DNA of 48,169 nucleotides from a bacterium. Lineage in GTDB: Bacteria; Bacillota_I; Bacilli_A; RF39; UBA660. The position numbers were made by a program, and so were the translations under genes. The notes under the pieces were generated by a model, which worked only from the letters and a program-made list of their open reading frames with translations, had not been told where the DNA came from and did no database searches. Shown in pieces: positions 2,795-45,173 of this stretch. The DNA is taken from assembly GCA_029099845.1 (NCBI GenBank), contig JAQXOT010000013.1:1-48169 (forward strand), in the 5' to 3' direction. Position 1 is the first letter of the stretch. Every line of letters starts with the position of its first letter.

Positions 2795-3163
2795 ATGAAT
2801 AAAAAAATATGTGAATATTTAAATTGTAATAAGTCAAAGAGTTTTAATGAGATACTCTTTTCGTATATCGATAAGAGTGGACATAAAGACTCCGAGATAT
2901 ACAAAAAAGTCGATATAGATAGAAAATTATTTTCTAAGATAAGATGTAACAATAATTACATCCCTAAAAGAAAAATAATTATCAAACTATGTTTAGCTTT
3001 AGAACTAAAAAGAAATGAATTTAATAATTTATTAAATTCAGCTGGTTATTCTTTAAGCAACAATAAGTTTGATCAAATTATTTCTTATTGCTTAGATAAT
3101 AACATTTATGATTTAAAGCAAATAAATCAATATCTATATACCTTCTGTAACGCTTCTTTGTAG
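2795..3163 (+). CDS. Small XRE-like helical protein (IDRKLFSKIR family)
   Basis: A 122-residue soluble protein preceded by AGAGGAGG. The core reads EIYKKVDIDRKLFSKIR, then a basic stretch (PKRKIIIKLCLALELK), then NEFNNLLNSAGYSLSNNKFDQIISYCL and a terminal YDLKQINQYLYTF. From memory, this module occurs alone or at the C-terminus of macro-domain proteins in gut Firmicutes, and its helix pattern resembles an XRE-type helix-turn-helix, so DNA or RNA binding is plausible but unproven. It has its own strong promoter and terminator. It sits directly upstream of the structured RNA and the Ro-like DUF2828 gene, which suggests, without proving, a shared stress-related or RNA-related role. Confidence 0.6.
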   Translation: MNKKICEYLNCNKSKSFNEILFSYIDKSGHKDSEIYKKVDIDRKLFSKIRCNNNYIPKRKIIIKLCLALELKRNEFNNLLNSAGYSLSNNKFDQIISYCLDNNIYDLKQINQYLYTFCNASL

Positions 3164-3172
3164 GCGTTTTTT
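3149..3172 (+). terminator. Terminator overlapping the regulator stop codon
   Basis: AACGC / GCGTT stem with a 10-base loop spanning the stop codon, followed by seven T. Confidence 0.6.
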
Positions 3173-3211: not shown

Positions 3212-3217
3212 TATAAT
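3212..3217 (+). promoter_or_regulatory. -10 element for the structured RNA / Ro-like gene
   Basis: A perfect TATAAT. Transcription starting seven bases downstream would begin at about 3224, exactly at the 5' strand of the closing stem of the RNA element. No good -35 is visible at 17 bp, so the promoter is tentative. Confidence 0.45.
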
Positions 3218-3221
3218 TAAT

Positions 3222-3347
3222 TTAGTCAATGAAAAAAAGACACTTCCAGCAAATTATTTGAATAATTAAAAAAGGTGTCTTGTAAAAAAAGCCATATCCA
3301 GCAACAAAACGAAAAATATGATTATACAGTGGCTTGTAATTGACTGA
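3222..3347 (+). ncRNA. Candidate three-way-junction RNA with two sister hairpins
   Basis: Seen in the sequence: closing stem P1 pairs 3222-3230 (TTAGTCAAT) with 3339-3347 (ATTGACTGA), nine pairs including one wobble. Inside it, P2 pairs AAGACAC (3237-3243) with GTGTCTT (3275-3281), and P3 pairs AAGCCA (3289-3294) with TGGCTT (3330-3335). Both inner hairpins carry the same motif TCCAGCAA on the 5' side (3245-3252 region and 3297-3304) and end in CTTGT. The Shine-Dalgarno AGGAGG (3351-3356) of the Ro-like gene follows P1 by three bases. It may be a cis-acting leader (riboswitch or autoregulatory site) or a Y-RNA-like partner of the downstream protein. I do not recognise it as a known RNA family. 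Confidence 0.5.
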
Positions 3348-3364
3348 TATAGGAGGTAATACTT

Positions 3365-4798
3365 ATGAATTTATTAGAAGGGATGAAACAAAATAGTACA
3401 ATTACCAATAGTAAAGGTGGAAAGTACTATCAAACAACATATGATAGTAACCTAGATTTATTTACAAAATTATCAAGATATACCACAGATGAAGAAATCA
3501 TCAGACTATTTAATAGTGCCCTAAATGAAGATGAAGAACTAGCCTTGGCCAATTTATTATATATACTAGATGTTAGGGAAGGAAAAGGGGAAAGAAGAAT
3601 TTTTAAAACTATTTTTAAAAATTTATGTACAACCAATTCCACACTAGCTCTAAAAGTATTACCATTTATTAGTAAATTAGGTCGATATGATTACATTTTA
3701 GTTGGCTTAGATACTAAAATAAATGATGAAGTAATATCTCTAATAAAAATGCAATTAGCCGAAGATTTAAAAGAAGACCATCCATCATTATTAGCCAAAT
3801 GGTTACCAAGCCATCGAACACATAACAAAAATAGTCTTCTTGCTAAAAAAATTAGAAAAGGCTTAAACATGAGTGAAAAAGAATATCGCCAAACACTTTC
3901 ACTTATAAGAAAAAAGTTAAATATAGTGGAAAGAAATCTAACCACAAAACAATATAATAATATTGTTTTTAGTGAACTACCAGCTAAAGCAATGCTTAAA
4001 TACACTAACACTTTCCTAGCTAAAATGACAGATGAGTATACCGAGTATAAAAAGCAAGTCGCAAATTCTAAGGAAAAAATAAACACTAAAGTTCTCTTTC
4101 CCCATGAAATTATTAGAAACATCTTAACTGCCAAACAGTTAGATAATGAATTATATAATTTGATGTGGAGCAATCAAAAAGATGTTTTAAAGGGTTGCAA
4201 CAGTAATATATTAGTAATGGCTGATACTTCTAACTCAATGACTAGGTATGACTTATTGCCATATTCTGCCTCCCTTGGCTTAGCTTTAATAAGTGCGGAA
4301 CATAATACGGGACTATTTAAAAACCATTTTCTAACATTTTCTAACGAACCATATCTCCACGAAATAAAAGGAAAAACAATTTTTGATAAAATCAAAAATA
4401 TTCACCAAGCATCTTCTCATACTAATATTGACAAAGCTTTTGAGCTACTTCTAACAACAGCTAAAGAAAATAACCTCACACAGTCTGAATTGCCCAGTCA
4501 TTTATTAATAATTTCTGATATGGAATTTGCCTCCTCTGTTTCCTCTAAAAATGGGACAAATTTTTCAGCCTGGCAGGAAAGTTTTACTAATGCTGGCTAT
4601 AAATTACCAAATGTTATCTTTTGGAATGTAGCAGGTAGAATAAATGGAGTACCAGTAACTAAGTTTGATAATGATGTAGCCTTAGTAAGTGGCTTTTCAC
4701 CCAATATATTAACTAACTTATTTTCCCTAGATGTCTATACTCCAAATAATATTATGTTGGAAAAGTTAAAACCATATCTTGAAATATTAAGAAGATAG
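3365..4798 (+). CDS. DUF2828 family protein, Ro60/TROVE-like with VWA domain
   Basis: A 477-residue soluble protein with a strong AGGAGG ribosome site. The N-terminal ~270 residues follow the DUF2828 pattern: LLAKWLPSHRTH, then LNIVERNLTTKQYNNI, then SELPAKAMLKY and LFPHEIIRNIL. The C-terminal part is a von Willebrand A fold with metal-site residues DTSNSM, the Thr of SHTNIDKAF and the Asp of IISDMEF, in the correct order. A helical-repeat ring plus VWA is the architecture of Ro60/TROVE RNA-binding proteins, which bind Y RNAs and misfolded RNA; DUF2828 relatives are poorly characterised. A structured RNA element sits directly upstream. No catalytic residues are missing from the metal site. 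The RNA-binding role is an inference from architecture and context. Confidence 0.75.
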   Translation: MNLLEGMKQNSTITNSKGGKYYQTTYDSNLDLFTKLSRYTTDEEIIRLFNSALNEDEELALANLLYILDVREGKGERRIFKTIFKNLCTTNSTLALKVLPFISKLGRYDYILVGLDTKINDEVISLIKMQLAEDLKEDHPSLLAKWLPSHRTHNKNSLLAKKIRKGLNMSEKEYRQTLSLIRKKLNIVERNLTTKQYNNIVFSELPAKAMLKYTNTFLAKMTDEYTEYKKQVANSKEKINTKVLFPHEIIRNILTAKQLDNELYNLMWSNQKDVLKGCNSNILVMADTSNSMTRYDLLPYSASLGLALISAEHNTGLFKNHFLTFSNEPYLHEIKGKTIFDKIKNIHQASSHTNIDKAFELLLTTAKENNLTQSELPSHLLIISDMEFASSVSSKNGTNFSAWQESFTNAGYKLPNVIFWNVAGRINGVPVTKFDNDVALVSGFSPNILTNLFSLDVYTPNNIMLEKLKPYLEILRR

Positions 4799-5088: not shown

Positions 5089-5488
5089 ATGGCAAAGATA
5101 ACAGAAATAATGATTAGAGAATTTAAGATCTTAGAATTAGGCTATGATTTTATGGGTTATAGTTTAAATAAAGGGGATATATACCTATCACCATTTAATG
5201 ATCCCCAATCGTGAAGGTGGCCCAGCTTCCTTTGAAAATGGGGCTATATTGTGTGGGGCAAGTTCACACCCATATCTTCATGCCATTGAAGAAGTTGACT
5301 ATGGCATCTTCTACGAGCTAAGAAAAGAAATGATTGAAATGCATAAAAAATGTTGCATCGATATAGAAAACCTTAAAAAGATAAATGCACTACTTTGCCA
5401 ATTTGAAAGAGAAAATTGTTCAGCTAAACTAAAAAATGGTAGACCTCTAATTAAGGAGCAATATACTATCAGATTTTTAAATAAATAG
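5089..5488 (+). pseudogene. HNH-like conserved protein, frameshifted in a GGGG run
   Basis: An ATG at 5089 opens a frame (MAKITEIMIREFKILELGYDF...) that stops at 5212-5214. Removing one G from the GGGG at 5173-5176 joins it to the second frame, giving the continuous product GYSLNKG-IYTYHHLMIPNREGGP, then NGAILCGASSHPYLHAIE and a tail to the stop at 5486-5488. The HH...GG...NGA...H...LH arrangement resembles a small HNH-type nuclease fold and matches a conserved family I recall from gut Firmicutes; its function is unknown. The intact product would be about 132 residues. The single-base shift may be a real mutation, an assembly indel or, less likely, programmed frameshifting. No strong ribosome site precedes 5089 (only GCGGTG). 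Confidence 0.65.
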
Positions 5489-6354: not shown

Positions 6355-6435
6355 AAGTACTTACCGATTCTAGGTTTAAAGAATTTCCGACTTTTTACTT
6401 AGATTTGGCTAATATATAAGAAAGGAAGTGTTAAT
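6355..6435 (+). promoter_or_regulatory. Possible S15 autoregulatory leader
   Basis: The ~77-base leader contains an outer pairing AAGTA (6355-6359) / TACTT (6396-6400) and an inner GATTC (6366-6370) / GAATT (6381-6385). In many bacteria rpsO leaders fold into S15-binding structures of unrelated shape. This one is short and only suggestive. Confidence 0.3.
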
Positions 6436-6705
6436 ATGGCATTAACAAAAGAAGAAAAAGCTGTAATCGTAAAAGAGTTTGCTAAAAATGAAAAAGATAC
6501 AGGCTCTGCTGAAGTACAAATCGCTATTCTTACTAAAGAAATTAACGATTTAACAGAACACTTAAAAGTTCATACTCACGATTACCATTCACGTAGAGGA
6601 TTACTAAAGAAGGTAGGACAACGTAGAAATATGTTACAATATTTAGCTAAGAAAGATATTCAAAGCTATCGTGAAGTAATTAAAAAATTAGGATTAAGAA
6701 AGTAG
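6436..6705 (+). CDS. rpsO: 30S ribosomal protein S15
   Basis: At 89 residues it has the exact family length. Recognisable S15 features include [16 protein letters not shown], the [18 protein letters not shown] core that binds the 16S rRNA three-way junction, and a C-terminal [13 protein letters not shown]15 binds the central domain of 16S rRNA early in 30S assembly. The ribosome site AAAGGAAGTG precedes the ATG. The rpsO-pnp order is the classical one in Gram-positive bacteria; a terminator hairpin between them probably lets S15 be made in excess of PNPase. Confidence 0.98.
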
Positions 6706-6731
6706 GCACTTATTTTTAGTGTCTTTTTTTT
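6704..6731 (+). terminator. Intercistronic terminator between rpsO and pnp
   Basis: AGGCACT (6704-6710) pairs with AGTGTCT (6718-6724) with one G-U pair, followed by eight T. Probably partial, allowing read-through into pnp, since no separate pnp promoter is evident in the remaining gap. Confidence 0.75.
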
Positions 6732-6755
6732 CGAGAAGAAAAGAAGAGGTAAATA

Positions 6756-8963
6756 ATGAATAAAAAAGTATTTGAATTAGATTTTCATGGACGTAAAATT
6801 GTTGTTGAACATGGCGAGTTAGCCAAACAAGCTGACGGAGCTGTTTTAGTTAGATATAATGATACTGTTGTTTTAACTGCTGCTGTAGTTAGCAAAACAG
6901 TAAACTTATTATCTGATTTTTTCCCATTAACTGTGAATTATCAAGAAAAATTATATTCAGTAGGTAAAATTCCTGGTGGATTCATTAAAAGAGAAGGACG
7001 CCCAAGTGAAGCTGCCACTTTAGCAGCCAGAATGATTGATCGACCAATGCGTCCACTTTTCCCTGAAGGGTTCAAAAATGAGGTTCAAATTATTTCAACT
7101 GTTTTATCAGTTGATCAAGACTGCTCTCCAGAATTAACTGCTATGCTTGGATCATCCCTAGCGGTATCAATATCTAAAATACCATTTAATGGACCAATTG
7201 CTGGTGTAAAGGTTGGACGTGTTGATGGAGAATTTATTATTAATCCAACTCCAGAACAACTAGAAAAATCTGAACTAGACTTAACTGTTGCTGGTACCAA
7301 AGAGGCCATAAACATGGTTGAATCCAGTGCTAAACAAGTATCTGAAGATGTTATGCTTGAAGCCTTGATGTTTGGTCATGAAGCAGTTAAAGAGTTGATT
7401 GCCTTCCAGGAAAAAATCATTGCAGAAATAGGGGAAGAAAAAATGGAGTATGAAACATTAACTCCAGATCCAGAAATGGTTGAAAGAATTAAGGCTCTTG
7501 CAACAGATAAAATGGATAAAGCTTTAAGAATAAAAGGAAAATTAGAAAAATATGAAGCTATTGATTCTGTTAAAGAAGAAGTTTTAGAAATATATAAAAC
7601 TGAAAATGAAAATAATTTAAAAGATGACGAATTAAAAGAGTTATTAGTCAAAGTTAATATGGTTTTATCTGACATAGAATATGACTTATTTAGAAGCATT
7701 GTTGTTAAAGAAAAGCAAAGAGCAGATGGTCGTAAAATGGATGAAATTAGGCCTTTATCTACAGCCATTGATATCTTACCAAGAACTCATGGCTCAGCCC
7801 TTTTCACTCGTGGAGAAACCCAAGCTTTATCTGTTACAACTTTAGGTGCTTTAAATGAACACCAAGTAATAGATGGTTTAAGTATGGAAGATCAAAAACG
7901 TTTCATGCTTCACTATAACTTTCCACAATTTTCAGTAGGCGAAACTGGTCGCTATGGCGCACCTGGAAGACGAGAAATTGGCCATGGTGCTCTAGGTGAA
8001 AAAGCTCTAGCTCAAGTAATTCCTTCTGAAGAAGAATTCCCATATACCATCCGTGTTGTATCAGAAATACTAGAATCAAACGGTTCCTCATCTCAAGCCA
8101 GTATTTGTGCCGGCTGTATGTCTTTAATGACCGCTGGAGTTCCAATCAAAGCCCCAGTAGCAGGAATTGCTATGGGTCTAATTACACATGGTGATGACTA
8201 CACAATTCTTACTGATATTCAAGGAATGGAAGATCATCTTGGAGATATGGACTTTAAAGTAGCGGGAACCAAAGATGGAATTACAGCTTTACAAATGGAT
8301 ATAAAGATAAAAGGAATAACTAAAGAAATTTTAAAAGAAGCTCTAACTCAAGCTAAAAAAGCTCGCCTAGAAATTTTAGACGTCATTACTAAACAAATAC
8401 CACAACCACGTAAAGATGTTTCACAATATGCACCAAAGATGGAAACATTTACAATTAACCCTGCCAAAATCAAAGATGTAATTGGTCGTGGTGGTGAAAC
8501 AATTACAAAGATTATTTGTGATGCTTCAAATGTAACAGAAGTAACCAATATCAATGCTGTAAAAGTTGAATTAGAAGATGATGGCCGAGTAATTATCTAT
8601 CACTCTGATCGAGAAATAATTAATAAAACACGCCAAATGATTGAAGAAATTGTCCGTGAAGTTGAAGTTGGCAAAATCTATGAAGCTAAAGTAGTAAAAA
8701 TTGAAGACTTTGGTTGTTTTGTCCAACTATGGCCAGGTTGTGAAGGTCTAGTCCATGTTTCTCAATTAGCTAGTGAACATGTCAATAAAGTAGAAGATGT
8801 TGTTTCTTTAGGTGATGAAATTCTTGTAAAAGCTCTTGGCCCAGACAAAAAGGGAAGACAAAACTTTTCTAGGAAAGAGGCTCTAAAAGATTCAACCAAT
8901 TCAAAAAAGAAAGATTCAACAATGCCTATTGAATCATCAGAGCAAAACGAAGAACAAAAATAA
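6756..8963 (+). CDS. pnp: Polyribonucleotide nucleotidyltransferase (PNPase)
   Basis: 735 residues, slightly longer than typical (~705). It is a phosphorolytic 3'-5' exoribonuclease of RNA turnover that works as a trimer. Domain order is complete: RNase PH 1 (about 1-215, including [18 protein letters not shown]), an alpha-helical linker (235-310), catalytic RNase PH 2 (315-545, with [39 protein letters not shown] and [18 protein letters not shown]), KH (VIGRGGETI at ~574-582) and S1 (from ~625, [20 protein letters not shown]). A charged Lys/Ser/Glu tail follows S1. The ribosome site GAAGAGGT lies just upstream of the ATG. It is cotranscribed with rpsO and followed by a terminator. Confidence 0.98.
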
Positions 8964-26784: not shown

Positions 26785-28377
26785 ATGTATAATCAAAAAG
26801 AAAAAAACCACCATAGAAAAGCATCTATTATTAGAGAAAGAAAAAAAGCACTTGATAGCATTAAAAATCTTGTAGAAAGAAAAAATTATGCTAAGGCCTT
26901 ATCCGAGCTAAATAAATATTTAGAAGTAAATAGCACTGATATGTTTGGTCACTTCTTACATGGACGAATTCTTATGGCTTGCGGAGATTTAAAGCAAGCT
27001 AAGCAAGTCTTTACCAAAGTTTTCGAATCAACTAGTACCAATCGCTATAGTGCCTTAATAGCCTTAGGTGATATTGCTAAACTAGAAGGTAATATAGAAA
27101 CAGCCAAAGATTGTTATTATCAAGCAATTACTAATAGCCCCTATAATGAAAAATATGCCATAATAACCCTAGCACGTTTAGAAAGTAAAGAAGAACATTA
27201 CGATAAAGCCTTAAAGCTTCTTGAAAGATTAGATCCAAATTCTATCGAAACAAAAATTGAACAAGCTCGTTCTTATACGGCTAAAGGAGAACTCGGTAAA
27301 GCTTATGAAATTTTAGAAACTTGCATTAATCAAACAAGCGATGAAAATAGACTATTAGCCTTAGAAAAAGGTAAAATTGCTAGAAATGCCAAAGACATTC
27401 CAACTGCTAAATTTAATTATTTAAAAGCCAAAGAAAGTTCTAAAAAGGATGATATTTATTATAAAACATTGATGGAAGAAGCCAAGTTATATTTAGATCT
27501 TGGAGATTTTAATAATGCATCTTCTTGCTGCCAAGAACTACTATCATCTAATGTAGAATATCAAGGTGAAGTATATTTGCGCTTAGGCACTGCTCAAGAA
27601 GGCTTAAAACAATTTGACCAAGCCCTTATTAATTATCGTCTAGCAACAACTTCACAAGATCCTGATATTCGTTCATTAGCATACTACAATATGGGGTCAT
27701 TACAGTTTGCTAAAGGAGAATATTCTTCTGCCAAACGTTCATTGATAAATAGTATAACGCCTAAAAAAGCGCCTAATTCAACCCATATTAAATTAATTGC
27801 CATTATGTTAAAAGAAAAAAGATACGATGAAGCTTACTCTTATCTTCAACAAGTCATGCCAGAAAATCCCACTAAAGATGATTTCTGCTTATTACACGCT
27901 AAATTACTTTTAGATAAAATTAAAGGCAATCCCTTACCAACTCGTGCTAGTAAAAACTACACGGAAAGACAAATTATTGAATACCGTGAAGATGATGCCC
28001 TAGATCATATTATTAATCATCATCAACTAATAATAGAAGAAGTTGGAAACTTTGCTAAACAAATTGATATTCCCACACTTTTTACAGATATAAAGTATCA
28101 ATTAACTGAAGAAAATATGGTTAATGAGGATATTGCCGATATCTATGAAGTTGACTATCCTAATGCTGGTTATGATCTAGATGGTACTTTAGTTCACAAA
28201 ATAAGAGTTGTTTGCCTACCAACAACCAAAAACATCTTAACTATGTATCCAAGTTCTAAATCCAAAACCCCACGTTTAGGAGATTTTAAGAAAATACCTC
28301 AAGAAACTTCAAAAACTAGTGATCAAATAGCCAAATTTAATAAAAAATTTAAAAACTATGTTCCACCCAAATGCTAA
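26785..28377 (+). CDS. TPR repeat protein, first of three tandem paralogues
   Basis: 530 residues, AAAGGGGG ribosome site, no signal peptide. A short Lys/Arg-rich head (MYNQKEKNHHRKASIIRERKK) leads into about ten TPR-like helix pairs (for example YAKALSELNKYLEVN, GDLKQAKQVFTKVFE, GNIETAKDCYYQAI, QFDQALINYRLATT). After ~380 a shared C-terminal region begins (NPLPTRASKNYTERQIIEYRED) and ends with a compact domain YEVDYPNAGYDLDG, VVCLPTTKNILTMYPS and a tail IAKFNKKFK. This C-terminal domain is the feature shared with the two downstream genes. TPRs mediate protein-protein contacts; the partner is unknown. Position behind thrS is accidental, as a terminator and a strong promoter separate them. Confidence 0.75.
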   Translation: MYNQKEKNHHRKASIIRERKKALDSIKNLVERKNYAKALSELNKYLEVNSTDMFGHFLHGRILMACGDLKQAKQVFTKVFESTSTNRYSALIALGDIAKLEGNIETAKDCYYQAITNSPYNEKYAIITLARLESKEEHYDKALKLLERLDPNSIETKIEQARSYTAKGELGKAYEILETCINQTSDENRLLALEKGKIARNAKDIPTAKFNYLKAKESSKKDDIYYKTLMEEAKLYLDLGDFNNASSCCQELLSSNVEYQGEVYLRLGTAQEGLKQFDQALINYRLATTSQDPDIRSLAYYNMGSLQFAKGEYSSAKRSLINSITPKKAPNSTHIKLIAIMLKEKRYDEAYSYLQQVMPENPTKDDFCLLHAKLLLDKIKGNPLPTRASKNYTERQIIEYREDDALDHIINHHQLIIEEVGNFAKQIDIPTLFTDIKYQLTEENMVNEDIADIYEVDYPNAGYDLDGTLVHKIRVVCLPTTKNILTMYPSSKSKTPRLGDFKKIPQETSKTSDQIAKFNKKFKNYVPPKC

Positions 28378-28410
28378 CCATAGTTAAAAATATAAAAAAG
28401 GAGTAAAACT

Positions 28411-30015
28411 ATGCGCCATAATAATTCTAAAAGAAAGTATCAAACTACGATAGAAAAAACGAAAGACATAAAAAATCGTAGTAAGAAACTTGAAAGTATT
28501 AAAAATTTAACCTCTAAAAATATAAATGCTGGTAGAAGAGAAATTCTCCATTATTTAGAAGAATACCCAAATGATATGTTTGGCTATTTTCATTATGGAC
28601 ATATTGAAGAAATGCTAGGAAACCTAGATCATGCAACAGAAATATTTACTGCTGTAGCTAATTCTGATTGGAAAAATAAGTATAGCGCCATAATTAGACT
28701 AGGAGATATTGCTAGTAAAAAAGGTGATATATCTAAGGCCAGAACACTATATACTAAAGCGATTAATGAAAGCAGTCACGAAGAAGTTTACGCTCTTCAA
28801 GCCCTAGCAACTTTAGAAAGATCACAAGGTAATTACACCAAGGCTTTAGCAATATTAGAAAAAATTAGTTTACCAACAGATAAAATTAAATTAGAAAAAG
28901 TAAAACTCATTGCTTTAGCAGGAAATGCCGAAAAAGCTTTAAAAATGATTAGTGAACTTGCCCAAAATAGTACCATTTCTAAAAGAGAATTAACTCTAGT
29001 CTATGGCAGAGTTTTACGCCAAATAGGAGATAAAAAGTCTGCCTTATATTACTTAGAAAGCATCAAAGAATATCCTCTTAAAGATGATACCTATTATGAG
29101 GCAATTTATGAATTAGCTCGCATCCTAGAAGAAACAGATACTAAAAGTGCTATTGCTTATTGTGAAGAACTAATTGCAACTGACAATTTATATGACCGAG
29201 CTGTTTACGTCACTTTAGGTTTTGCCAATCAGCGCCTAGGAGAATATGCTAATGCCCTAAAATGTTTTAAAGAGGCAACTAAATCAACTGATACCGAAGT
29301 ATATTCCAATGGCTATTATCAATTAGGATGTCTTCAGTACTTAATGGGAGAATATGAGCAAGCTGAACATTCATTGCAAAATAGTATTGTTAATCAGCAA
29401 AATATTTCCTCAGCGCTATGTGCTAAACTAATCGGTGTATACATTAAACAAGGAAAATATCAACAAGCAGATGCCTTTTTACAAAAAGTCATTCAAATAA
29501 ATGGTGATTTTCTTAAAGAACACGACTTTACTTTGGCCAAATTACTTATTGCCAAAAAGCTTGGTCGAAGCCTTCCACCACTTAATAGATGCAGTTATGG
29601 TGGTCAACAAATAATAGACTACTCTAAAGACCGAACTCTAGATCATATTAAAAAATATCATGTTAAACGAGTTCCTGACAAAACAACTTTTAGCCCGGAT
29701 ATAGATATTGAAAAATTATATAGTGAAGCCGTCCTTCAAATGAACGATGCTAATCGAATAAATTCTGATATAATGGATTTTTATGCTCTATCTTATCCAA
29801 ATTGTGGCTATGACCAAGAAAACAACATTTCTAACAGCCTTATTGTCATTACTATTCCAGGAACCACCAACATTATAAATATGTATCCAGCTGCACCAAA
29901 TCTTCTTCCTACTCAAGGAGAAATATTATCTAAAATAGAATCAGAAAAGCGTCCCAGCAAGCAAATCAGCAAATTTAATGCTAGATTTGAAAAATCAAAC
30001 AATTATAAAAAATAA
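28411..30015 (+). CDS. TPR repeat protein, second tandem paralogue
   Basis: 534 residues, 33 bases after the first paralogue; ribosome site AAGGAG. Same architecture: basic N-terminal head, a first repeat containing DMFGYFHYGHIEEMLG (compare DMFGHFLHGRILMACG in the first copy), multiple TPRs (ISKARTLYTKAI, YANALKCFKEATKS, YEQAEHSLQNSI), then SLPPLNRCSYGGQQIIDYSKDRTLDHI, followed by YALSYPNCGYDQEN, ITIPGTTNIINMYPA and ISKFNARFE. The shared C-terminal domain is therefore retained while the repeat region has drifted. No catalytic motif is visible. The role is likely the same kind of scaffold or receptor as in copies one and three. Confidence 0.75.
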   Translation: MRHNNSKRKYQTTIEKTKDIKNRSKKLESIKNLTSKNINAGRREILHYLEEYPNDMFGYFHYGHIEEMLGNLDHATEIFTAVANSDWKNKYSAIIRLGDIASKKGDISKARTLYTKAINESSHEEVYALQALATLERSQGNYTKALAILEKISLPTDKIKLEKVKLIALAGNAEKALKMISELAQNSTISKRELTLVYGRVLRQIGDKKSALYYLESIKEYPLKDDTYYEAIYELARILEETDTKSAIAYCEELIATDNLYDRAVYVTLGFANQRLGEYANALKCFKEATKSTDTEVYSNGYYQLGCLQYLMGEYEQAEHSLQNSIVNQQNISSALCAKLIGVYIKQGKYQQADAFLQKVIQINGDFLKEHDFTLAKLLIAKKLGRSLPPLNRCSYGGQQIIDYSKDRTLDHIKKYHVKRVPDKTTFSPDIDIEKLYSEAVLQMNDANRINSDIMDFYALSYPNCGYDQENNISNSLIVITIPGTTNIINMYPAAPNLLPTQGEILSKIESEKRPSKQISKFNARFEKSNNYKK

Positions 30016-30044
30016 ATAATCGTAATATAAATCGAGGAGAAAAT

Positions 30045-31676
30045 ATGACAAAAAGAAACAAGAAAACATATCATAAAGACCAAAATTTAGAAAAATGGGC
30101 AAAAATAAAAGAATTAAATAGTATAAAAACATTAATAGATAGTGGTAAACTTTCTAAAGGCTATGCAGAGTTAGCTAAATATGTTGAAAGACACCCAGAA
30201 GACCCATATGGGCATTATTTATATGGCAAATGCTTCCTTGATAATAATGAATTAGATTGTGCTCAAAAAGAATTTGAAATAGTTGCCAAACAAGACAGCA
30301 AAAAACGTCATAGTGGTTTAATTAGTTTGGCCAGAGTATACTGGTTAAAAGGCGATAAGGATAGTGCTAGAGAATATTATAATGAGGCTATAGAAGATAA
30401 TCCTTATGGTAGCCTTTTAGTCTATCTTTGTTTAGCCGAATTAGAAAATGAGGATAAAAATTATTATAGTGCTTTAAATACTTTATACCGTGCTTTAGAT
30501 GTAGAACCAGTAAAAGGGCATAGTGAAGTAGCAATCACTCACGATGATGTTCGTCTTAGAATTGCTAAAAACTTATTAGCCTTAGGCGACTATTCTGCTG
30601 CTTCTTTAATGGTAGAAAGTATTGTTGCATCTAATCCTACTTTAGAGCGAGAATTATACTTTTTAAAAGCAGAAATCAATAAAAGCCAAGAAAATTATGA
30701 ACAAGCTATTCCATATTTAGAAATGGTTCGCACATCTGAAGAAAAGGACAAAATATACTATCAAGCCACTATGACTTTAGCTATGGTGTATAAACAACTT
30801 GGAAAAATTTCAGAAGAAATAGCTTGCTTAGAAGAGCTACAACAAAATACAATTTGTCCATATGATGATGTTCCATTATTGTTAGGCATGGCCTTAATAG
30901 CCAACAAGGATTATGCTAAGGCAAAAGCTGCTTTCAAAACAGGATTGGATGCTAGAGATTTTAATGTTAAAAATCAATCTGCCTATTATTACAGCGCTCT
31001 TCAACTCCTAGAAAAAGATAATACTGGAGCTATAATTACCTTAAAAAAAGTAATTGATAATCAAACTACACCATATCGCATTAATTATATATCTTTAATT
31101 AGAGCTCTATATAATCAAGGAAACTATGAAGAAGCTCGTCACTATATAGAAAAAATCTGCCATATTAGTCCTGACAATGAAGACAACTATTCTTTTATTC
31201 GCCTTCAATTATTACTCGACAAATCGCAAGGGCTACCTTTACCTAATAGAGAAAAAAAGCCTTACATAGATCGACAATTCATTGCTTATGATTTAGATGA
31301 AGCCATTGATTTAGTAACTAATAATCATCTTAAAAATACCTTTGGAAATTCTGCCTTTCCAAGTAATACCGATATTCGCCAAGTCTTTGAAGATGTTAAA
31401 CCATTTTTAGTAGAAGAAAATAAATTACTAGATAATATTGTTGATGAATATGAAGTTTTCTATCCAAACGCTGGCTATTATGAAGGTCGCGTTTATAATC
31501 ATCTTCGGGTAAAGACTATTCCAGGAACCACTCAAATTCTTTCACTTTATCCTAGTGAGGAGTCTTTCCTTCCAACAAATGGAGCCCTAAAAGAAACTTT
31601 AGGCTATGAAAAAAGAAAAGAGTCTTCAAAAATTGAACGATTCAATAGACGATTTGCTAAACAACAAAATTTATAG
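30045..31676 (+). CDS. TPR repeat protein, third tandem paralogue
   Basis: 543 residues, 29 bases after the second copy; ribosome site GAGGAG. The head is again basic (MTKRNKKTYHKDQNLEKW), followed by SKGYAELAKYVERHPEDPYGHYLYGKC, then TPR units (KDSAREYYNEAIEDN, YEQAIPYLEMVR, YAKAKAAFKTGL). The C-terminal domain carries LPLPNREKKPYIDRQFIAYD, YEVFYPNAGYYEG, VKTIPGTTQILSLYPS and IERFNRRFA. The three genes share order of elements and terminal motif, which marks them as tandem duplicates diverged over long time. The operon ends at a strong terminator immediately upstream of the mraZ region. Confidence 0.75.
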   Translation: MTKRNKKTYHKDQNLEKWAKIKELNSIKTLIDSGKLSKGYAELAKYVERHPEDPYGHYLYGKCFLDNNELDCAQKEFEIVAKQDSKKRHSGLISLARVYWLKGDKDSAREYYNEAIEDNPYGSLLVYLCLAELENEDKNYYSALNTLYRALDVEPVKGHSEVAITHDDVRLRIAKNLLALGDYSAASLMVESIVASNPTLERELYFLKAEINKSQENYEQAIPYLEMVRTSEEKDKIYYQATMTLAMVYKQLGKISEEIACLEELQQNTICPYDDVPLLLGMALIANKDYAKAKAAFKTGLDARDFNVKNQSAYYYSALQLLEKDNTGAIITLKKVIDNQTTPYRINYISLIRALYNQGNYEEARHYIEKICHISPDNEDNYSFIRLQLLLDKSQGLPLPNREKKPYIDRQFIAYDLDEAIDLVTNNHLKNTFGNSAFPSNTDIRQVFEDVKPFLVEENKLLDNIVDEYEVFYPNAGYYEGRVYNHLRVKTIPGTTQILSLYPSEESFLPTNGALKETLGYEKRKESSKIERFNRRFAKQQNL

Positions 31677-43657: not shown

Positions 43658-43757
43658 TTTTAACGCCTATTTTTGCGTAAATTTACACATAAAAATGAAA
43701 AAAACCAGAAAATATTAAAACGAGTAAGTATAATTGAATTATAGAGGAGTAAGACAA

Positions 43758-45173
43758 ATGAAGAAATTAAATGAAAAAGGATTTACATTAATAGAACTTT
43801 TAGCAGTCATTGTAATAATATCTATACTTATGATGATTGCAATTCCTAGTGTTTCTCGGATAATTGAAAAATCAAGAATAGATTCTTTTGTAACTACAGC
43901 AAAAGCATATGTTAATGCAGCTAAAAACTTATGGACAGCTGATTCTTTAACATGTGGTAATAATAATACATATGTTTCTGGAGTGGATGATGGAGATTAC
44001 TATATTTTAATAGACACAAGTGATGATACTATTTCTCCATTGATAGAGAAAAATAGTAAATCACCTTGGGGAGGTAGAGATTTAAAAGGTTACGTTCGTA
44101 TTACAAAAGCAGGGGATGGAGATAAAGTTACTAAATATTATGTTGCTTTAACTGATGGAACACATGCAATATATGACGATGTATTTAACCCAATAGAATC
44201 ATATCAGTTAGATAGAAATGATGTAATAAATGATATTACTAAAGAATCAAAAAAATTAAAAAAGATTCAAACAACTCCATTTGAAATAAATAAATATACA
44301 ACATGTAGTGAAGAAAGTGTAACATGGACAGGAACTTCAAGCCCTTATAAAGATAGTTATGAACCAAAAACAGAAGGAGTAGCATATGCTTTATTTTCAG
44401 AAACCGACAACTCATTAACTTTCGTACGTTCTGAAGCCGAAATTAAACCAGGCGATGTTTATGAAGGAATAAAGGTAACAAAGGTTTATACAGGCTTTGA
44501 AAGAGCAGATTATCATTCATCTGATTTTGTTCCTTGGCATGGTGAAAGCAGAGCAATTAGGAAAATTGAGGTAAGAGATATAATAAAACCAATTAGCACA
44601 GCACACTGGTTTTATGAGTTTGAATATTGTTCAGATGTAAATGTTGCCAACTTAGATACATCAAACGTTACAAATATGAGAAGTATGTTTAGAGATTTAG
44701 GATATTATGGTGAAGATATATATTTGGATTTGAGTGGTTTTAATACAAGTAATGTTACATATTTACCTTATATTTTTATGTCAACAGGATATAAAGCTAA
44801 AAATATTACGATAGATTTAACTGGGTGGAATACTAGTAAAATTACAGATATGAGTGATTTTTTCTGGAGAGTTGGTGAATACGCAACAACAGTAAATATA
44901 ATAGGCATTGAAGATTTTGATACAAGCAAAGTTACAAATATGTCTAGTATGTTTTATGCAGTTGGTGAAAATGCCACAACTCTTAATTTAGGCGATTTAA
45001 GTAAATGGGATACATCGAATGTAACTAATATGGAGAGTATGTTCTGTAAAACAGGATATAATGCATCTTTTTCATTGGACTTAAGTAACTGGAATGTTAA
45101 TAATGTTACTAGACATGGTAGTTTTAATTATAATGTATCTTATAAGATAAAATCTCCAATTTGGGTTAATTAA
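43758..45173 (+). CDS. Type IV prepilin-like protein with DUF285/BspA-like repeats
   Basis: 471 residues from the ATG at 43758, with AGAGGAG upstream; the in-frame TTG at 43734 lies before that site. The N-terminus MKKLNEKGFTLIELLAVIVIISI is a classical class III signal: prepilin peptidase would cut after EKG and methylate Phe. A pilin-like middle (~30-250) with a Cys pair follows. From ~298 come five or so DUF285-type repeats (NLDTSNVTNMRSMF, FNTSNVTYLPYIF, WNTSKITDMSDFF, FDTSKVTNMSSMF, WDTSNVTNMESMF), with ~25-30 residues between units. Such repeats are known in BspA-like adhesins and Mollicutes surface proteins. Fusion to a prepilin head implies display on or assembly by a pilus-like fibre. 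Codon use is more AT-rich than ackA. Confidence 0.85.
   Translation: MKKLNEKGFTLIELLAVIVIISILMMIAIPSVSRIIEKSRIDSFVTTAKAYVNAAKNLWTADSLTCGNNNTYVSGVDDGDYYILIDTSDDTISPLIEKNSKSPWGGRDLKGYVRITKAGDGDKVTKYYVALTDGTHAIYDDVFNPIESYQLDRNDVINDITKESKKLKKIQTTPFEINKYTTCSEESVTWTGTSSPYKDSYEPKTEGVAYALFSETDNSLTFVRSEAEIKPGDVYEGIKVTKVYTGFERADYHSSDFVPWHGESRAIRKIEVRDIIKPISTAHWFYEFEYCSDVNVANLDTSNVTNMRSMFRDLGYYGEDIYLDLSGFNTSNVTYLPYIFMSTGYKAKNITIDLTGWNTSKITDMSDFFWRVGEYATTVNIIGIEDFDTSKVTNMSSMFYAVGENATTLNLGDLSKWDTSNVTNMESMFCKTGYNASFSLDLSNWNVNNVTRHGSFNYNVSYKIKSPIWVN

What the first reader, a model, noticed from the sequence alone, without database searches (positions are those of the whole stretch)
3222..3347. Two-sister-hairpin three-way-junction RNA next to a Ro/TROVE-like gene
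A 9-bp closing stem encloses two hairpins that share the pattern AAGnCA...TCCAGCAA...TGnCTTGT, with the gene's Shine-Dalgarno right after the closing stem and a TATAAT whose start would fall at the 5' edge of the stem. The duplicated UCCAGCAA motif within different stems points to a conserved recognition element. It could be a Y-RNA-like partner of the downstream ring-shaped protein, an autoregulatory binding site, or a new riboswitch.
Basis: seen in the sequence. Interest (0 to 1): 0.75.

Follow-up and report, generated by a model that had tools for sequence, protein, structure and literature searches.

The report
Y-RNA array beside a Ro60-like gene
The two hairpins belong to a large, apparently uncatalogued family of small RNAs found beside a Ro60-like RNA-binding protein gene in gut bacteria and many phages; many members carry a piece of tRNA, so they look like the bacterial counterpart of the human lupus-linked Ro/Y RNA particles.

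Summary
The structure is real and the Y-RNA guess is right in kind. Window 3222-3347 folds as described. Its conserved core is a 7-8-bp stem followed by NNACAGCAA, not UCCAGCAA. Across 148 distinct loci encoding homologues of the downstream protein, 119 carry such hairpins within about 2.5 kb: 306 sites, against 2-12 for permuted motifs. With no stem filter, 63% of sites have the exact complement of their own arm downstream, against 1.4% for other loci's arms. The protein models as a Ro60 ring: VIA-align Z 22-23 to Ro60, next unrelated hit 11.8. Many relatives, though not the window, carry tRNA-like modules: direct, YrlA-like permuted, or a complete tRNA body whose anticodon arm is replaced by this stem. 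The window has the minimal form, two plain hairpins in the leader of the ro-like mRNA, joined by a closing stem specific to its clade. Rfam has no matching family; only permuted members match YrlA, below threshold. Binding, processing and function are inferred. I rate it a new variant of a known kind, with wide spread and unexpected topological diversity.

The parts
3212..3217 (+). TATAAT -10-like box, about 5 nt before the closing stem
   Evidence: Read. A -10-like box lies at about the same place before the closing stem in clade relatives L100, L101, L102, L104, L106, L107. No good -35; the consensus scan does not list a + strand promoter here.
3222..3230 (+). closing stem, 5' arm (UUAGUCAAU)
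   Evidence: Pairs with 3339-3347. An 8-bp or longer stem with different sequences in L100, L101, L102, L104-L107, L109; only chance-level matches (0-7 pairs) in L108 and L111-L121.
3237..3243 (+). hairpin 1, core Ro-type stem, 5' arm (AAGACAC)
   Evidence: Pairs with 3275-3281 (GUGUCUU).
3247..3252 (+). conserved CAGCAA of hairpin 1
   Evidence: CAGCA 99-100% and the last A 81% across 286 hairpins (the scan was anchored on this motif); significance.
3253..3272 (+). hairpin 1 loop, A/T-rich, with a small inner hairpin; no tRNA-like body
   Evidence: fold; read directly.
3275..3281 (+). hairpin 1, 3' arm (GUGUCUU), followed by conserved GU at 3282-3283
   Evidence: G after the 3' arm in 94% of hairpins.
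3289..3295 (+). hairpin 2, core Ro-type stem, 5' arm (AAGCCAU)
   Evidence: AAGCCAC/GUGGCUU in most clade relatives.
3299..3304 (+). conserved CAGCAA of hairpin 2
3329..3335 (+). hairpin 2, 3' arm (GUGGCUU), followed by conserved GU at 3336-3337
3339..3347 (+). closing stem, 3' arm (AUUGACUGA)
3351..3356 (+). Shine-Dalgarno AGGAGG of the ro-like gene
   Evidence: Read.
3365..4798 (+). ro-like gene, 477 aa, DUF2828 + DUF7788 (vWA-like), PHROG 850; Ro60 fold
   Evidence: Pfam, PHROG 850 E 1.2e-111, AlphaFold pLDDT 91.7 / pTM 0.91, Ro60 match.
2795..3163 (+). 122-aa gene, looks HTH-like by eye, conserved upstream neighbour in the window's clade
   Evidence: 61-80% identity over at least 115 residues in 13 loci (11 distinct relatives; L002=L107 and L005=L106 are duplicates); no Pfam match.
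3149..3168 (+). terminator-like hairpin at the end of the upstream gene, separating it from the RNA
   Evidence: No terminator-like site between the hairpins and the ro-like gene.

Best explanation
Window 3222-3347 is a tandem pair of minimal Y-RNA-like elements, the RNA partners of the Ro60-like ring protein encoded just downstream. Each element is a 7-8-bp stem whose 5' strand runs into an internal-loop motif NNACAGCAA and whose 3' strand is followed by G(U). I propose that this stem and motif is the Ro-binding site. In relatives the same stem holds tRNA-like bodies in several circular permutations, so it works as a handle that displays an effector module on Ro, as YrlA does for Rsr. In the window the effector is reduced to a short A/T-rich loop. 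The likely mechanism is this: the leader is transcribed from a promoter just upstream, Ro binds the two hairpins, the RNA is stabilised and may be trimmed to a particle of about 125 nt, and it occupies or gates the Ro ring. Because the pair sits immediately before the ribosome-binding site, Ro binding may also dampen its own translation in this clade. Shown: structure, covariation, motif conservation, linkage to the gene, Ro60 fold (predicted model), tRNA mimicry in relatives. Inferred: binding, processing, gating, autoregulation.
For: Unselected covariation: 220 of 351 sites have an exact cognate 7-nt complement against 1.4% for non-cognate arms, 62 arm types. Enrichment: 306 sites at 119 of 148 loci against 2-12 sites for permuted motifs; upstream 209 hairpins against 3 in the gene bodies. 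The protein model matches Ro60 2i91, 1yvr and 1yvp (Ro with RNAs) at Z 22-23 over about 400 residues, and Rsr 2nvo at 13.4; the first unrelated row is 11.8 and vWA only. Foldseek below 1e-3 returns only Ro autoantigen and Trove. 31 of 254 loops hold a 5-bp T arm against 0.08 in shuffled loops. Permuted members align with the Rfam YrlA model, several end to end. A scan by RNA pattern alone found 77 viral loci; 43 have the Ro-like gene on the same strand in the held DNA and 10 more elsewhere on the contig. An exact RNA pattern hit 3 of 386 family genomes, all three with the gene. The hairpins lie up- or downstream of the gene in phages of Salmonella, Listeria, Mycobacterium, Staphylococcus, Campylobacter and Bacillus.
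Against: No RNA or binding data. The window's loops carry no tRNA-like body, and its linker base before CAGCAA is C rather than the usual A. No terminator-like site separates the hairpins from the gene, so a discrete RNA would need processing. About 20% of homologue loci show no hairpin nearby, and Vibrio phi-pp2 (weak hit), Staphylococcus Alsa_3 and Xanthomonas XbC2 show none convincing. 24 of 77 RNA-pattern viral records have no Ro-like gene found, most being fragments but some over 170 kb.
Confidence: 0.85

Rival explanations
1. The hairpins are only a cis-acting autoregulatory leader: the Ro-like protein binds its own mRNA and blocks translation, with no free RNA partner.
For: In the window's clade hairpin 2 mostly ends 22-34 nt before the start codon, next to the Shine-Dalgarno, and no terminator-like site separates RNA and gene in the window.
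Against: In Staphylococcus SEP9, Mycobacterium Enceladus and Felixounavirus UAB_Phi87 the hairpins lie downstream of the gene or among downstream tRNAs. Arrays of up to six and tRNA-like cargo are unneeded for a repressor site.
Confidence: 0.1
2. The hairpins derive from phage tRNA arrays: decayed or rearranged tRNA genes with no shared function with Ro.
For: Many copies sit in tRNA clusters and contain tRNA parts.
Against: The part under selection is the CAGCAA stem, with 62 arm sequences that are matched by their own complements, present with or without tRNA parts. Permuted and anticodon-replaced forms keep intact arms and 7/7 acceptors.
Confidence: 0.03
3. A metabolite riboswitch controlling the ro-like gene.
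For: Conserved motif in a structured 5' leader.
Against: The only conserved part is a stem with one short internal-loop motif. Loops differ freely, copies number one to six, position relative to the gene varies, and the elements track one protein gene. No Rfam riboswitch match.
Confidence: 0.02

Closest known systems
YrlA bacterial Y RNA (Rfam RF02553), partner of Rsr/Ro60
   Same: A basal stem made by the 5' and 3' ends holds a tRNA-like module. Permuted members (T arm, closed acceptor, D arm) align with the Rfam model, several end to end. YrlA's basal stem binds Rsr and its tRNA-like domain binds PNPase (PMC8394870).
   Different: All matches are below the gathering score (39.8 bits at most, against 69). 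The internal loop carries CAGCAA rather than YrlA's AUGCU-like loop. Members come as arrays, with plain, direct-tRNA, permuted-tRNA and anticodon-replaced tRNA forms. The window's copies have no tRNA module.
Ro60 / TROVE proteins (Ro60 autoantigen, D. radiodurans Rsr, Ro60 of Thermus phage phiLo)
   Same: Same ring fold with a vWA domain; Z 22-23 to the best Ro60 entries, 13-15 to phage and Deinococcus Ro.
   Different: TROVE is not among the common Pfam matches of 60 homologues; they match DUF2828 and DUF7788 instead. Five TROVE-type loci examined lack the CAGCAA array; the Deinococcus gobiensis one has a YrlA-like RNA instead.
Permuted tRNA genes and tRNA-like RNAs in general
   Same: Circular permutation of a tRNA body and intact T and D arms.
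   Different: The break or insertion is the CAGCAA stem at the anticodon position, so they cannot decode; they look like handles for Ro rather than tRNAs.

Membership tests
Y RNA (Ro-associated noncoding RNA) | Bound by a Ro60-family protein | not testable with these tools
   Needs binding or pull-down data.
Y RNA (Ro-associated noncoding RNA) | Encoded next to a Ro-family gene | tested here: met
   119 of 148 loci within about 2.5 kb; RNA-only pattern: 53 of 77 viral loci have the gene on the record.
Y RNA (Ro-associated noncoding RNA) | Stem pairing the 5' and 3' parts of the RNA, with a conserved internal-loop motif for Ro | tested here: met
   Covarying 7-8-bp stem plus NNACAGCAA. That this is the Ro site is inferred.
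Y RNA (Ro-associated noncoding RNA) | Effector module mimicking tRNA (bacterial type) | tested here: inconclusive
   Met in a subset of relatives (31 of 254 loops with a strict T arm); absent from the window's own two loops.
Rfam YrlA (RF02553) | Score at or above the gathering threshold of 69 bits | tested here: not met
   No match in the window; best relatives 39.8 and 39.0 bits.
Ro60 / TROVE protein family | Ring of helical repeats plus vWA domain (Ro60 fold) | tested here: met
   AlphaFold pLDDT 91.7; top rows all Ro60/TROVE, Z 22-23.
Ro60 / TROVE protein family | TROVE sequence signature (PF05731) | tested here: not met
   DUF2828 and DUF7788 in 60 of 60 homologues; TROVE not among the 25 most-matched families and not in the window protein at E up to 1; a TROVE search of the own genome finds nothing.
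Ro60 / TROVE protein family | MIDAS motif DxSxS in the vWA domain | tested here: met
   D287, S289, S291 invariant in 55 sequences.
Riboswitch | Ligand-binding aptamer with conserved loops and an expression platform | tested here: not met
   Loops are not conserved, no Rfam riboswitch match, no terminator-like or Shine-Dalgarno-sequestering helix in the leader. Ligand binding itself was not testable.

The most novel reading that the evidence does not exclude
A widespread, undescribed class of Y RNAs, defined by the NNACAGCAA stem and paired with a DUF2828-type Ro60, occurs as arrays in phages and gut bacteria. It exists in reciprocal circular permutations: the same Ro handle either encloses a tRNA body or replaces the anticodon arm of a complete tRNA body that keeps its acceptor stem (in Cronobacter phage S13 with encoded CCA), giving undecodable tRNA mimics that Ro carries.
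Probability: 0.65. Interest if true: 0.87.

Novelty: new variant of a known kind. Interest (0 to 1): 0.8.

Why it matters
Ro/Y RNA particles are targets of autoantibodies in lupus, yet what they do is poorly understood, and bacterial functional work rests mainly on Deinococcus (PMC7790460). This family puts a Ro60-like protein and its likely RNA partners within reach in hundreds of sequenced phages (671 records with a homologue), including phages of E. coli K-12 and M. smegmatis laboratory strains. That makes three questions directly testable: what Ro recognises, what the tRNA mimic does, and why phages carry the system. The circularly permuted forms define the minimal Ro handle by nature's own mutagenesis and may explain odd phage tRNA annotations.

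Tried and rejected
The single-protein query failed to find relatives in genome contigs and viral contigs; an 8-sequence alignment solved this. Low-scoring Rfam hits in the window (snoRNA, miRNA, Dictyostelium RNA) are chance. YrlA searches of phylum genomes only ring below cut-off, and also in control genomes, so they are not used as evidence. A functional link to the pnp gene about 2 kb downstream (6756-8963) was considered because Rsr, Y RNA and PNPase form RYPER; no pnp or rpsO was found in the DNA held around the gene in the relatives, so adjacency looks coincidental. Two exact patterns for the anticodon-replaced form found nothing; a looser one found 26 distinct places, 13 with both a complementary stem and a 7/7 acceptor. 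The main Y-RNA papers (RNA 2014, 20:1715; Annu Rev Microbiol 2020) are not held, so prior description of parts of this family cannot be excluded; a secondary source says several phages were reported to have YrlA (PMC7765460).

Full report
What is in the window. Energy is only mildly better than shuffles (z -2.13), and two TCCAGCAA in the window are unremarkable on their own. The gene at 3365-4798 matches DUF2828 and DUF7788 and PHROG 850, 'RNA-binding protein'. The window comes from a small genome of about 1.14 Mb; the closest relatives found are labelled uncultured Bacilli.

Comparative test. Only 12 of 386 genomes of the same family have a homologue. With an alignment of eight homologues I collected 80 viral and 80 genomic loci. 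Their upstream regions contain hairpins of one design: a 7-8-bp stem, usually AAGNCAC-like, then NNA, CAGCA(A), a loop of very variable length, the 3' arm, and G(U). In the 700 nt upstream, 99 of 148 distinct loci hold 209 such hairpins, against 16 in a farther 1-kb stretch, 3 in the gene bodies and 9 downstream; the median permuted hexamer gives 1. Counting both flanks, 119 of 148 loci have 306 sites against 2-12 for permuted motifs.

Covariation without selecting for stems. Of 351 [AG]CAGCA sites upstream, 63% have the exact reverse complement of their own 7-nt arm 12-140 nt downstream; arms borrowed from other sites fit in 1.4%, and permuted motifs in 0-3%. There are 62 different arm sequences. 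Pair tables show AT/TA/GC, AT/CG/GC and GC/AT/CG exchanges at successive levels of the stem (those hairpins were selected for pairing, so one search is the evidence). The window's closing stem has different, still paired sequences in L100, L101, L102, L104-L107 and L109, but only chance-level matches in L108 and L111-L121: a clade feature, not part of the core.

The protein. An AlphaFold model built from 55 sequences has pLDDT 91.7 and pTM 0.91. Foldseek finds two PDB matches below 1e-3, Ro autoantigen and a Trove domain. VIA-align puts Ro60 with misfolded RNA (2i91), Ro60 (1yvr) and Ro60 with RNAs (1yvp) at Z 22-23 over 388-411 residues at 3.7-3.9 A; the Ro60 of Thermus phage phiLo scores 14.9 and Deinococcus Rsr 13.4, while the best unrelated row is 11.8 over the vWA domain alone. 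TROVE is not among the common Pfam matches of 60 homologues; all match DUF2828 and DUF7788. The MIDAS residues D287, S289 and S291 are invariant. So this is a Ro60 by fold, on a branch that Pfam names DUF2828.

tRNA mimicry. Rfam tRNA hits fall inside hairpin loops in several loci. By a strict rule 31 of 254 loops hold a 5-bp T arm, against 0.4 expected from gene bodies and 0.08 in shuffled loops. Twelve show D arm then T arm, seven the permuted order T arm, closed acceptor, D arm. The permuted ones match the Rfam YrlA model, several end to end, but at 26-40 bits, under the gathering score of 69. A third arrangement appeared in odd long tRNA hits: a tRNA-shaped RNA whose anticodon arm is replaced by the same stem, now closed by a short loop, as in GTGCTTT-GTTA-AAAGCAC-TAA-CAGCAA (L264). 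Seventeen such candidates have 7/7 acceptor pairs, while four tandem-hairpin false positives have 5/7. A pattern search that knows nothing of tRNA returned 26 distinct places: of 16 with complementary stems, 13 have a T arm and a 7/7 acceptor. In Cronobacter phage S13 two RNAs of this shape are annotated as tRNA-Ser (121 nt) and tRNA-OTHER (113 nt).

Linkage tested from the RNA side. A pattern for the RNA alone found 77 viral loci; 43 hold the Ro-like gene in the DNA at hand, all on the same strand, and 10 more elsewhere on the contig. An exact pattern hit 3 of 386 family genomes, each with the gene. In named phages the hairpins lie upstream (Listeria AG20, Campylobacter F365, Enterococcus VRE9_3, Bacillus BcoS-136), downstream (Staphylococcus SEP9, Mycobacterium Enceladus) or in the adjacent tRNA array (Felixounavirus UAB_Phi87). 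This movement argues for a trans-acting RNA. Five TROVE-type Ro loci have no such array, and the Deinococcus gobiensis one has a YrlA-like RNA at 49.6 bits just upstream.

Mechanism, with status. Shown: a covarying stem with an invariant motif, tied to a Ro60-fold protein gene, often displaying tRNA-like modules. From published work (PMC8394870; PMC7790460): in YrlA the basal stem binds Rsr and the tRNA-like domain binds PNPase, giving a structured-RNA degrading machine. Inferred: the CAGCAA stem is the Ro site and the loop is the effector. The window's pair is the minimal case. It has a -10-like box just before the closing stem, a position shared by several clade relatives, and no terminator-like site before the gene, so it is probably transcribed with the ro-like mRNA and either trimmed out or acting in place. 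Ro binding beside the Shine-Dalgarno could also limit Ro synthesis in this clade.

Standing against what is known. It works like a Y RNA. It is not a member of Rfam YrlA by score, and the protein is not TROVE by sequence. Phage Ro proteins are known (annotations; PDB 9l5y), and a secondary source says YrlA has been reported in several phages. I found no held paper describing the CAGCAA stem, the arrays or the anticodon-replaced forms, but the key primary papers are not held, so novelty is likely rather than certain.

Noticed in passing
window 2795-3163: A 122-aa gene that looks HTH-like by eye lies upstream of the RNA and is conserved (61-80%) in 11 distinct clade relatives, roughly those that have the closing stem; no Pfam match. 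Possibly a regulator travelling with the RNA/ro-like module.
   Followed up: partly
window 6371-8963: rpsO with an Rfam S15 leader (6371-6492) and pnp (6756-8963) lie about 2 kb downstream of the ro-like gene; PNPase is the known partner of Rsr/Y RNA, but neither gene was found in the held DNA of relatives.
   Followed up: yes
L112, L113, L115, L117-L121, just upstream of hairpin 1: A strongly conserved promoter region, about TTGACACAAATGACACATTGTGTTA, with an operator-like inverted repeat directly before the first hairpin; the regulator is unknown.
   Followed up: no
L288 4395-4515 and 4525-4637 (Cronobacter phage S13): Annotated tRNA-Ser (121 nt) and tRNA-OTHER (113 nt) are tRNA bodies whose anticodon arm is a CAGCA stem, apparently with encoded CCA; probably misannotated Y-type RNAs.
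   Followed up: partly
window 43734-45173: A 479-aa protein with a prepilin-like start (GFTLIELLAVIVIISILMMIAIPS) and repeats of the type LDLSNWNTSNVTNM, probably a surface protein.
   Followed up: no
window 26785-31676: Three consecutive similar genes encoding 530-543-aa repeat-rich (TPR-like by eye) proteins in tandem.
   Followed up: no
window 5090-5488: An apparently frame-shifted gene: the reading frame that begins near 5090 stops early, near 5215, and coding seems to continue in another frame from 5198.
   Followed up: no
L206, L243, L245, L256 (viral records of 170-280 kb): RNA-pattern hits in large viral contigs in which no DUF2828-type Ro gene was found; they may use another partner or the record may be incomplete.
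   Followed up: partly
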